64,000 nt of DNA from a virus, in IMG/VR virus record IMGVR_UViG_3300036780_000119, positions 36,467-100,466 of that record, one strand, 5' to 3'. The position numbers were made by a program, and so were the translations under genes. Position 1 is the first letter of the stretch, and every line of letters begins with the position of its first letter. This document shows, piece after piece, positions 61,228-64,000 of this stretch. A model generated the notes under the pieces. The model searched no databases, was not told the DNA's origin, and saw only the letters and a list, made by a program, of their open reading frames with translations.

Positions 61228-61521
61228 ATGCGGCAGGAAACCGCAGACGCGATTCTCGCGCAGCTCGACCAGCACGGCTGGGGCCAGGGACAGGCGGTCA
61301 GCGGCGACGGCAAAATCTGCCTGAGCCACGCACTCACCCTCGCATACACAGCCCAGAACATTGGCAATGTGCGGGTGGTGTGGGACGAACTGTGCGATAA
61401 GGCGCGTGCCCTCTTTCCCAGCCAGATCGGCAAGGGTGACGCGATCACTTTCAACGATGACCCGCAGACCAGCGAAGAGGATGTGCGGCTGCTCATCAAG
61501 CAGTGTGTGGAGGACACGTGA
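61228..61521 (+). CDS. DUF6197-like paralog 1
   Basis: 97 residues, ATG directly after the previous stop with AGGAGGAAT. ILAQLDQHGWGQGQ, GKICLSHALTLA, then ITFNDDPQTSEEDVRLLIKQCVED. The FND-x-P-x-T-S-E-x-V-x-x-x-(L/I)-K pattern is that of DUF6197. First of three tandem copies; function unknown. Confidence 0.6.
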   Translation: MRQETADAILAQLDQHGWGQGQAVSGDGKICLSHALTLAYTAQNIGNVRVVWDELCDKARALFPSQIGKGDAITFNDDPQTSEEDVRLLIKQCVEDT

Positions 61522-61811
61522 AACGCGACGTCGCGGACCGGATCCTCGCCCAGCTTGACCAGCACGGCTGGACCCAGGACCGCAGCGTCAGCACCAGCGG
61601 GCAGATCTGCGCGTCCGAGGCGGTGTGCCGGGCCCTCGGGCAGCAGTTCGGCCTCAACGCCGTAGACGACGCGGAATGCGAACTGGGCACCAAGGCCAAG
61701 CGCATGTTCCCCGGCCGGGGCAAATGCGCGGACCTGATCTATTTCAACGACCACCCGCAGACCAGCGAAGAAGACCTGCGGCTCGTCATCAAGCACTGCG
61801 TGGAGGACTAG
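61518..61811 (+). CDS. DUF6197-like paralog 2
   Basis: 97 residues, GTG overlapping copy 1. VADRILAQLDQHGWTQDRSV, GQICASEAVCRALGQQF, then YFNDHPQTSEEDLRLVIKHCVED. Closest to copy 1 at both ends; the middle has diverged. Confidence 0.6.
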   Translation: MKRDVADRILAQLDQHGWTQDRSVSTSGQICASEAVCRALGQQFGLNAVDDAECELGTKAKRMFPGRGKCADLIYFNDHPQTSEEDLRLVIKHCVED

Positions 61812-62141
61812 GTGAAACAGGAAACCGCGGACACGATCCTGCGGCTGCTGGACGAACACGGCTGGGGGCAGGCAACCGGGGCGGCCGGGTCGTGGCCACC
61901 GGGTGCGATCTGCCTGGGCATGGCGGCATCTGCTGCCGTCGGCGACTCCATGGCCCTGATGAGCGGTGGCCGCGCGGATCCGGTGATGTGGCAGCTGCAG
62001 CGGGTCATCCGCGACCACTTCCCCGGCCGGATGCGGGCCAGCGAGACGCCGCTGGGTGTGGTGGCCCGGTTCAACGACAACCCGGCCACCGGCCGCGAAG
62101 ACGTCAGCCTCGTGGTCAAGCACGCCGTGGACGGGCCGTGA
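61812..62141 (+). CDS. DUF6197-like paralog 3
   Basis: 109 residues, GTG directly after the stop of copy 2. TADTILRLLDEHGWGQATG, GAICLGMAASAAVG, ARFNDNPATGREDVSLVVKHAVD. Longer middle than the other two. It keeps the same end motif, so all three descend from one gene. Confidence 0.6.
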   Translation: MKQETADTILRLLDEHGWGQATGAAGSWPPGAICLGMAASAAVGDSMALMSGGRADPVMWQLQRVIRDHFPGRMRASETPLGVVARFNDNPATGREDVSLVVKHAVDGP

Positions 62142-62305: not shown

Positions 62306-62565
62306 AAACACCAGCGGCGTGCGGCACCCGCTCGGGCTACATGCGGCACAAACGCGCCGGAGAAGACCCGTGCGCGGCGTGCGTGGAGGCGAACCGGGCC
62401 TACTTCCGGGCGTGGCGGAAAACCCACCCGAACGTGTACAGCCGCCTGTTCAGCCGCGGCGCGGCCCGCAACCGGGCACTGACCCGGCTCGCCCGCGAGC
62501 AGCCCGCACGGTTCCGCGAACTGTACGCCGACGAACTCGGCGCGGAGGAAAGGAAAGGCGGATGA
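62302..62565 (+). CDS. Small zinc protein (CGTxSGYxRHKRxGExPCxxC type)
   Basis: 87 residues, GTG start. C7, H16, C24 and C27 form a compact zinc site in ACGTRSGYMRHKRAGEDPC; basic helices follow (FSRGAARNRALTRLAREQPARFREL). This type recurs in actinophage genomes near DNA-modification genes. Overlaps the methyltransferase ATG. Confidence 0.6.
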   Translation: MKTPAACGTRSGYMRHKRAGEDPCAACVEANRAYFRAWRKTHPNVYSRLFSRGAARNRALTRLAREQPARFRELYADELGAEERKGG

Positions 62566-64000
62566 CGGGGCCGGCGGTCGGTGAACTGTGCGCCGGGTAC
62601 GGCGGCCTGGGCATGGGCGTGACAGCGGTGTTCGGCGGGCAGGTCGTGTTCACCGCCGACAACGACCCGGGCGCGGCGGCGATCCTCGCGCACCGGTACC
62701 CCGGCGTGCCGAACCTGGGCGACATTACCCGGGCCGACTGGACCCAGGTAAGCCCAGTGGACATCCTGCTGGCCGGGTTTCCCTGCACTGATCTTTCGTG
62801 CGCTGGTGCACGAAAGGGTCTTCACGGCGGCACCAGGAGCGGAATCTGGGCCAATGTCGTCCTGGCCATTGCAGCGCTCAAGCCTCCGCTTGTTGTGCTT
62901 GAGAATGTTGCCAACCTTCTATCTGGAGGTGACTGGATTGACGAGCCTATTGCCCGATGCGTATGTGGCTGGCCTTATCGACGGCGAGGGATGCATACAT
63001 GTCAGCGGCAAGAAGAAGAACTTCGCCACTGTAGTGACCGTCGGGATGACCGTGAAGGCGATGGACATTCTCACGGCCCTGCACAGGCAGTTCGGGGGCT
63101 CTCTCCACATGTCGCGGGCGGCGACGGGGAAGTGGGACGAGGCGCACGCCTGGACGATCTCGGGACAGGCCGCGTCCGTGATGCTGCGCCAGATCGCGCC
63201 ACATCTCGTGCTGAAAGCGGAACAGGCGCGCCTCGGGATCCGGCTGGAGGACATCAAGTCGTTGCTGCCGAGGCGCCCGAACAAGCTGGGTTGCGTGTGG
63301 ACGGATCATGCGAGGGATCACTGCCGCACTATCCAGCGCAGAATGCAGGAGCTGAATGCCAAGGGGCCGAGTGCGCACCGGGAACCTGTGACACCTGCTG
63401 GATGCCGGAAAATTGCCCGGCTTGTGGGCGGCCAGTGGGTGACGGATCAGGGGGACCTATTTTCCGACCTTGGATGGGCACCGTTCAGGCAGACCTGGCC
63501 GAAGTCGGGTTCGATGCGCAGTGGTGTGTTGTACGAGCATCCGATGTCGGCGCCCCCCACCGGCGGGAACGGGTTTTCATCCTGGCGTGGCCTGCTGCCG
63601 ACACCAGCGGCGGGGAACTTCAACGACGGGGAGTCGCCGGAATCCTGGGAGGCACGCAGGCAGGCGAACCTGGCGAAGGGCATCAACGGGAACGGCCAGG
63701 GGACTCCACTGGCGATGGCCGTGCAGCTGCTCAAAACCCCAACCGCCCAGCTTGCGGTGAACGGCGGGAGCCAGCACCCAGACAAACGCCGGGAGGGCGG
63801 CCACGGGCCGACGCTGGCCGACCAGGTGGAGTGCGAGCTCCTGCCGACGCCCGGCGACCCGGCCCAGATTCATCAGGCCCGGGGCGAGGGAGGCCACTCC
63901 GACCTGGCCAGCGCGGCAATGTGGCTGGGCCAGGACCCGGCGCTGCTGCCGACCCCAGATGCGTCGATGGGCACCGGGGGCCGGGTGTCGGCGACGCCGG
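62562..64000 (+). CDS. C5-cytosine DNA methyltransferase, interrupted by a homing endonuclease gene (partial)
   Basis: Open from ATG at 62562 to the right edge (479 codons). Motif I GELCAGYGGLG (7-17), motif II FTADNDP, motif IV AGFPCTDLS with P74-C75, motif VI LENV (113-116). Directly after GG (122-123) the frame runs through about 500 bases that in another frame encode a LAGLIDADG enzyme. It then shows a Cys cluster, DLAEVGFDAQW and GAPHRRERVFIL (motif VIII, from codon 330). Beyond about 63620 this frame is low-complexity. Third-position GC drops from about 62785. Motifs IX-X lie outside or in the other frame, so activity is uncertain. Confidence 0.75.
   Translation, partial: MTGPAVGELCAGYGGLGMGVTAVFGGQVVFTADNDPGAAAILAHRYPGVPNLGDITRADWTQVSPVDILLAGFPCTDLSCAGARKGLHGGTRSGIWANVVLAIAALKPPLVVLENVANLLSGGDWIDEPIARCVCGWPYRRRGMHTCQRQEEELRHCSDRRDDREGDGHSHGPAQAVRGLSPHVAGGDGEVGRGARLDDLGTGRVRDAAPDRATSRAESGTGAPRDPAGGHQVVAAEAPEQAGLRVDGSCEGSLPHYPAQNAGAECQGAECAPGTCDTCWMPENCPACGRPVGDGSGGPIFRPWMGTVQADLAEVGFDAQWCVVRASDVGAPHRRERVFILAWPAADTSGGELQRRGVAGILGGTQAGEPGEGHQRERPGDSTGDGRAAAQNPNRPACGERREPAPRQTPGGRPRADAGRPGGVRAPADARRPGPDSSGPGRGRPLRPGQRGNVAGPGPGAAADPRCVDGHRGPGVGDA
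62925..62932 (+). promoter_or_regulatory. Strong ribosome site GGAGGTGA
   Basis: Eight bases complementary to the 16S 3' end, inside the methyltransferase frame, five bases before a TTG start at 62938. This decides the start of the homing endonuclease and suggests it is translated on its own. Confidence 0.7.
62938..64000 (+). CDS. LAGLIDADG homing endonuclease, frame continuing into methylase-like C-terminus (partial)
   Basis: TTG start, +1 relative to the methyltransferase; open for 354 codons to the edge. Residues 9-18 are VAGLIDGEGC, the LAGLIDADG helix with its acidic residue (62965-62991). Then come FATVVTVGMTVKAMDILTAL, FGGSLHM, W-T-I-S-G and LRQIAPHLVLKAEQARL, a single-motif enzyme of about 140 residues. 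From about 63422 the same frame reads GQWVTDQGDLFSDLGWAPF, TWPKSGSMRSG, LLPTPAAGNFNDGE and GGHGPTLADQVE, which resembles the C-terminal region of phage cytosine methylases, with GC-rich third positions after 63620. Confidence 0.75.
   Translation, partial: MTSLLPDAYVAGLIDGEGCIHVSGKKKNFATVVTVGMTVKAMDILTALHRQFGGSLHMSRAATGKWDEAHAWTISGQAASVMLRQIAPHLVLKAEQARLGIRLEDIKSLLPRRPNKLGCVWTDHARDHCRTIQRRMQELNAKGPSAHREPVTPAGCRKIARLVGGQWVTDQGDLFSDLGWAPFRQTWPKSGSMRSGVLYEHPMSAPPTGGNGFSSWRGLLPTPAAGNFNDGESPESWEARRQANLAKGINGNGQGTPLAMAVQLLKTPTAQLAVNGGSQHPDKRREGGHGPTLADQVECELLPTPGDPAQIHQARGEGGHSDLASAAMWLGQDPALLPTPDASMGTGGRVSATP

What the first reader, a model, noticed from the sequence alone, without database searches (positions are those of the whole stretch)
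62562..63440. LAGLIDADG homing endonuclease gene inside a phage C5-methyltransferase gene
Seen: methyltransferase motifs I, IV and VI run up to codon 123. There, without intron-like sequence, GGAGGTGA and a TTG open a +1 frame whose first motif is VAGLIDGEGC and whose next 130 residues follow the single-motif LAGLIDADG plan. Third-position GC falls from about 62785 on, before the insertion, as expected if flanks were co-converted from a donor. Inference: the element homed into the conserved ENV-to-motif-VIII segment and brought its own ribosome site, leaving the host frame open. Homing genes usually hide in introns or inteins or stand free between genes; a coding insertion with overlapping frames is unusual.
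Basis: partly seen in the sequence, partly recalled or inferred. Interest (0 to 1): 0.82.

Follow-up and report, generated by a model that had tools for sequence, protein, structure and literature searches.

The report
Out-of-frame homing nuclease in phage methylase
A selfish DNA-cutting gene sits inside a phage DNA-methylase gene in a shifted reading frame, and comparison of ten lineages suggests evolution has kept the methylase readable straight through it by making the same DNA spell two proteins at once.

Summary
Confirmed. A LAGLIDADG homing-endonuclease gene lies in the +1 frame inside a phage cytosine-C5 methyltransferase gene, between motif VI (ENV) and motif VIII. Its AlphaFold model is confident (pLDDT 92) and matches I-MsoI/I-CreI. 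No intron or intein was found. Empty alleles exist in near-twin phages and show a recoded 5' flank, the footprint of homing with co-conversion.

In eleven lineages (actinophages, uncultured viruses, an actinomycete MAG, a Methylibium MAG) the same element sits at the same site in the same +1 frame, and the host frame never has a stop; synonymous shuffles make this unlikely by chance. In the host frame every intact copy begins CxCG and ends CxxCG. All four cysteines depend on a rarely used wobble T in nuclease codons (combined log10 P about -29 over ten lineages, treated as independent). So the DNA appears selected in two frames: nuclease in +1, and in frame 0 an insert bracketed by a predicted zinc-binding clasp. 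Zinc binding and cleavage are untested.

The kind is known: ShiLan-type out-of-frame HNH insertions in phage methylases (PMC11855218). New: LAGLIDADG class, site, spread, selection test, clasp. Verdict: new variant of a known kind.

The parts
62562..64000 (+). Cytosine-C5 DNA methyltransferase gene, host frame 0; open to the end of the record and continued at record start (G000:C1:1-782), 647 aa in all
62781..62930 (+). Low-GC3 stretch of methylase codons just upstream of the insert; probable co-converted donor flank
   Evidence: GC3 0.53 vs mean 0.89; analogous recoded flanks
62901..62909 (+). Motif VI ENV codons; the insert lies just downstream
62925..62932 (+). Shine-Dalgarno GGAGGTGA for the nuclease
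62938..63420 (+). LAGLIDADG homing endonuclease, +1 frame, TTG start; LAGLIDADG motif VAGLIDGEG at 62965-62991
62911..63470 (+). Inserted element, approximate ends set by comparison with methylases that lack it
62958..62966 (+). Host-frame C-V-C (first half of predicted zinc clasp); both Cys come from wobble T of +1 codons GAT and TAT
63414..63425 (+). Host-frame C-P-A-C (second half of predicted zinc clasp); both Cys come from wobble T of +1 codons ATT and CTT
63426..64000 (+). +1-frame ORF fused in frame behind the nuclease (QWVTDQGDLFS..TWPKSGSMRSG..LLPTP repeats; phrog_1008), overlapping motif VIII and the target-recognition region; continues at record start
63549..63581 (+). Methylase motif VIII (GAPHRRERVFI) in frame 0, resuming after the insert

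Best explanation
This is a mobile homing element that lives in a coding gene by stacking two frames. In the +1 frame it makes a small, probably homodimeric LAGLIDADG nuclease from its own ribosome site (TTG 62938). The nuclease would cut uninterrupted methylase alleles near the codons after ENV (the V-x-GLLS codons), and repair would copy the element with a recoded flank that is no longer a target (inferred). In the host frame the same DNA is read through, not spliced: the methylase gains about 150-180 residues whose ends carry CxCG and CxxCG, predicted to bind one zinc and pin the insert as an outward loop, so that the methylase stays functional (inferred). Shown: insertion, +1 nuclease, empty alleles, recoded flank, stop-free host frame and conserved host-frame cysteines. 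Not shown: cleavage, zinc binding, methylase activity.
For: Same element, same site, same +1 frame in 11 lineages, each free of host-frame stops (third frame 5-15 stops); synonymous-shuffle P of zero stops 0.065, 0.21, 0.22, 0.006, 0.0002, 0.022, 0.045, <0.0002, 0.0018, 0.005, 0.087. Four host-frame Cys in 10/10 lineages with both ends intact, log10 P -6.8, -5.3, -9.6, -7.8. Of 37 relatives outside this methylase, 3 have an open -1 frame and 3 a CxC. Inventum (empty) and DotProduct (filled): upstream codons nearly identical (6 nt), then 20/36 nt changed in 12 codons, mostly synonymous, then the insert; the Gordonia phage Hans shares the recoded flank (5/36) although its upstream codons differ. 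Same pattern in L190 vs L044. Nuclease frame under purifying selection. Fold. No Rfam intron.
Against: The AlphaFold2 model of the host-frame protein is poor in the insert (residues 136-271 below 50; Cys zones 50-65), so the clasp is not seen in a model. L045 and L051 have no evident start codon for the nuclease, and L042 and L103 no strong Shine-Dalgarno. Hans and Getalong have methylase frames disrupted further downstream. The lineages share ancestry, so multiplied probabilities overstate significance.
Confidence: 0.8

Rival explanations
1. The host frame is open only because the DNA is GC-rich; the methylase is simply broken or tolerant, and the host-frame reading has no role.
For: In the most GC-rich members alone, zero stops is not rare (P 0.2-0.4); AlphaFold finds the host-frame insert disordered.
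Against: Host frame is open in all eleven lineages, including two at 52% GC where shuffles give P<=0.0002; four Cys kept by rare wobble T in ten lineages; third frame full of stops.
Confidence: 0.07
2. The nuclease has been domesticated and now serves the phage, for example as a partner of the methylase or in superinfection exclusion, rather than homing.
For: Always in the same methylase site across distant phages; in eight lineages the +1 frame runs on without stop into a conserved +1 ORF.
Against: Presence and absence within close phages (Hans vs MelBins; DotProduct vs Inventum and Quico) and the recoded flank shared across hosts point to recent movement.
Confidence: 0.1
3. It is an undetected self-splicing intron or an intein.
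For: Homing genes usually ride in these.
Against: No Rfam intron; the nuclease is out of frame with the host, excluding an intein; about 540 bp is nearly all nuclease; a stop-free host frame and host-frame Cys are unnecessary if the insert is removed.
Confidence: 0.03

Closest known systems
[quoted passage not shown] also Pacc40 gp60 and Applejack (PMC12613952)
   Same: Homing nuclease hidden out of frame inside a phage methylase gene; host frame open; no intron or intein detected; patchy distribution
   Different: Nuclease is LAGLIDADG, not HNH; site between motifs VI and VIII of a C5 methylase; own strong Shine-Dalgarno here (that paper found none for ShiLan); host-frame selection and cysteine clasp tested here
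Lone LAGLIDADG in cluster F1 methylases such as Taj_79 and Akhila_67 (PMC9957025, 2023)
   Same: LAGLIDADG nuclease in a phage methylase without intein or intron
   Different: It was read from the methylase protein sequence, so apparently in frame; not among the tblastn hits of this nuclease, where DotProduct is the only Mycobacterium phage; reported as restricted to F cluster and vertically inherited
I-CreI / I-MsoI / I-CvuI homodimeric LAGLIDADG endonucleases
   Same: Single-motif fold, E about 1e-7, TM 0.65
   Different: Those ride in group I introns; this one is out of frame in a protein-coding gene
Free-standing phage HEGs such as the LAGLIDADG gene overlapping thyX in Streptomyces phage Braelyn
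   Same: Related LAGLIDADG family (31% identity)
   Different: Lies beside its neighbour gene, not inside it

Membership tests
LAGLIDADG homing endonuclease (single-motif, I-CreI type) | LAGLIDADG motif with acidic catalytic residue | tested here: met
   VAGLIDGEG; D14, G15, E16, G17 invariant in 17 relatives
LAGLIDADG homing endonuclease (single-motif, I-CreI type) | alpha-beta-beta-alpha-beta-beta-alpha fold | tested here: met
   AF2 pLDDT 92.3; Foldseek PDB I-MsoI, I-CreI
LAGLIDADG homing endonuclease (single-motif, I-CreI type) | Pfam LAGLIDADG model above curated cut-off | tested here: not met
   LAGLIDADG_1 20.0 bits, cut-off 23.1. This is a detection threshold, not a defining trait; the fold and phrog_5046 match instead
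LAGLIDADG homing endonuclease (single-motif, I-CreI type) | Cuts an uninterrupted allele and homes | not testable with these tools
   Only indirect: empty and filled near-twins, recoded flank
ShiLan-type out-of-frame homing insertion in phage methylase | Nuclease ORF out of frame inside a methylase gene whose own frame stays open | tested here: met
ShiLan-type out-of-frame homing insertion in phage methylase | No intron or intein | tested here: met
   No Rfam intron; out-of-frame nuclease excludes an intein
ShiLan-type out-of-frame homing insertion in phage methylase | HNH nuclease of the ShiLan family at the ShiLan site | tested here: not met
   LAGLIDADG fold; so the same kind, not the same family
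Cytosine-C5 DNA methyltransferase (PF00145) | Motifs I, IV (PC), VI (ENV), VIII, IX, X in one frame | tested here: met
   Frame 0 across the record junction, 647 aa
Group I intron with HEG | Conserved catalytic RNA | tested here: not met
   cmscan finds only a sub-threshold ilvH hit
Intein | Nuclease in host frame between splicing domains | tested here: not met
   Nuclease is in +1; no splicing-domain match in frame 0

The most novel reading that the evidence does not exclude
A class of homing elements that carry two overlaid genes on one strand: a nuclease in the shifted frame and, in the host's frame, a purpose-evolved domain with a zinc clasp that lets the invaded protein fold and work without splicing, a third way beside introns and inteins to live inside a coding sequence.
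Probability: 0.5. Interest if true: 0.85.

Novelty: new variant of a known kind. Interest (0 to 1): 0.72.

Why it matters
Introns and inteins let homing genes invade conserved coding sequence because they are removed. How an element that is not removed persists was left open for the ShiLan insertions (PMC11855218). Here comparison across lineages gives a testable answer: the host-frame reading is itself selected, stop-free and bracketed by cysteines made from otherwise disfavoured wobble bases. It is also a clear natural case of one DNA stretch constrained in two frames, with empty, filled and decayed alleles available in cultured Gordonia and Mycobacterium phages.

Tried and rejected
Group I/II intron: Rfam at E<=1 gave only a sub-threshold ilvH match. 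Intein: nuclease out of frame, no splicing-domain match. Chance openness from high GC: single members are not significant, all lineages together are. Origin of the Cys pairs from the host: methylases lacking the insert have at most one CPxC and no CxCG before motif VIII; some (for example L121, CPWCMGE) have a native CxxC at the 3' side, so a host origin of the second pair, or a scar left by loss of the element, is not fully excluded. AlphaFold test of the clasp: inconclusive. A megablast for close phage relatives of window 20000-44000 found none. Two scans anchored on motif VIII gave no methylase with a short-spaced clasp but supplied the empty allele L190.

Full report
What is there. The window is the last 64 kb of a 100,466-bp virus record. 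A cytosine-C5 methyltransferase gene opens at 62562 in frame 0 (PF00145 E 2.9e-29). Its end lies at the start of the record: window 63723-64000 repeats at C1:1-334 with a short indel, and frame 0 continues there through motifs IX and X to a stop at 782. Read across the junction the methylase frame is 647 aa. Between ENV (62901-62909) and motif VIII (from 63549) lie about 540 extra bases.

The extra bases encode a homing nuclease in the +1 frame. phrog_5046 matches at 2.8e-25; Pfam LAGLIDADG_1 at 0.0013, below its cut-off. AlphaFold2 gives pLDDT 92.3 with the LAGLIDADG order of helices and strands; Foldseek against the PDB returns I-MsoI, I-CreI and I-CvuI at about 1e-7. Motif residues D, G and E are invariant in 17 relatives. 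Start signals: GGAGGTGA, then TTG 62938, -10.6 kcal/mol, in the best 1.6% of local starts. Between relatives, substitutions concentrate on the wobble of the nuclease frame. No intron was found by Rfam.

Empty alleles and the footprint of homing. tblastn found 50%-identical nucleases inside methylase genes of Gordonia phages Sitar, Sedona, Hans and Inspectinfecti and of Mycobacterium phage DotProduct. MelBins (same genus as Hans), Quico and Inventum (same genus as DotProduct) lack it. Inventum and DotProduct are nearly identical up to ENV (6 nt in the upstream windows compared); in the next 12 codons (VRGLLSA.AHRP) 20 of 36 bases differ, mostly synonymously; then the insert begins. Hans shares that recoded flank with DotProduct (5/36 differences) though their upstream codons differ by 6-17 per 36. 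An independent pair, L190 (empty) and L044 (filled), has an identical 3' flank and again a recoded VPGLLS 5' flank. This is expected if the nuclease cuts at these codons and the element is copied with a resistant flank. That this is a co-converted donor flank is inference by analogy.

The host frame is not merely open. Further scans gave eleven lineages in all, including an actinomycete MAG (L102) and a Methylibium MAG (L103). In every one the nuclease is in the +1 frame of the methylase at the same site, with no host-frame stop through the nuclease; where motif VIII is still present (all but Getalong) the two methylase parts are in one frame. Shuffling synonymous nuclease codons gives a chance of no stop from 0.22 down to below 0.0002 per lineage. 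Relatives outside this methylase mostly have -1-frame stops (34 of 37), though many are AT-rich, so the shuffle is the better control.

Four cysteines. Read in the host frame, each intact insert starts CxCG and ends CxxCG (usually CPxCG). Each Cys arises from a wobble T of a nuclease codon followed by G. The amino acids concerned differ between lineages (D, L, H, A; Y; I, R, A, F, V, P; L, I, S, H, F), so the nuclease does not force them. Given each lineage's codon use, the log10 probabilities are -6.8, -5.3, -9.6 and -7.8. The lineages share ancestry, so these overstate the surprise, but at 30-50% protein identity synonymous sites should be well mixed. The insert-free methylases examined lack the pattern. 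My reading is a zinc-binding clasp joining the two ends of an otherwise disordered loop. AlphaFold neither supports nor excludes it.

The +1 frame goes on. In the window and seven other lineages the nuclease frame is fused without a stop to a +1 ORF that overlaps motif VIII and the target-recognition region (LLPTP repeats, phrog_1008). In Gordonia phages, DotProduct and L005 the nuclease stops just before the ATG of that ORF. Insert-free methylases also carry it, and among close phages the substitutions there fall on its wobble position (for example 8,2,2 and 13,6,4 at frame-0 positions 1,2,3), unlike motifs I-VI. So a conserved overlapping +1 ORF exists independently of the insertion; its function is unknown to me.

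Literature. [quoted passage not shown] PMC9957025 describes a lone LAGLIDADG in F1-cluster methylases. Neither main text names DotProduct or Gordonia. The kind is therefore known; the LAGLIDADG class out of frame at this site, its spread to a proteobacterial MAG, the evidence for selection on the host frame and the cysteine clasp are, as far as these searches show, new.

Limits. No activity was tested; insert ends in the window are approximate because no close insert-free relative was found; the methylase of this phage is split by the record junction.

Noticed in passing
window 63426-64000 and L003, L018, L020, L023, L025: Conserved +1-frame ORF (W.T.Q.DLFS..TWP.SGSMR.G..LLPTP repeats) overlapping methylase motif VIII and the target-recognition region; substitutions among close phages fall on its wobble position, so it is probably translated; function unknown.
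   Followed up: partly
L004 (GigiOuiOui gp65/gp66), L005, L113, L115, L119-L121, L140: Many phage C5 methylases appear split into two ORFs: motifs I-VIII ending just after motif VIII, and (seen in L004 and L005) a +1 ORF with LPTP repeats and motifs IX-X; suggests two-subunit enzymes or programmed frameshifting.
   Followed up: partly
window 63723-64000 vs G000:C1:1-334: The record's ends overlap inside the methylase gene with an indel of about 57 bp in an LPTP-repeat region, so the genome is circular or terminally redundant and the assembly broke at a repeat.
   Followed up: partly
L108 2312-4594: LAGLIDADG domain in frame inside a different DNA methylase, shortly after the TDPPYG motif.
   Followed up: no
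L058 2184-3443: Relative of the nuclease with an open -1 frame that runs into what looks like a major capsid protein; a possible second host gene for out-of-frame insertion, or an intron.
   Followed up: no
L022 (Getalong) 1422-2512: Element present but methylase motif VIII deleted: a decayed filled allele.
   Followed up: partly
window 61228-61521, 61503-61811, 61812-62141: Three tandem paralogous small genes (M.xETAD.IL..LD.HGW.Q...) just upstream of the methylase.
   Followed up: no
L121, L111, L120 and similar insert-free methylases: Insert-free methylases often carry a single CPxC(M/L)GD between ENV and motif VIII that aligns with the 3' cysteine pair of the element; either a native motif or a scar left by loss of the element.
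   Followed up: no
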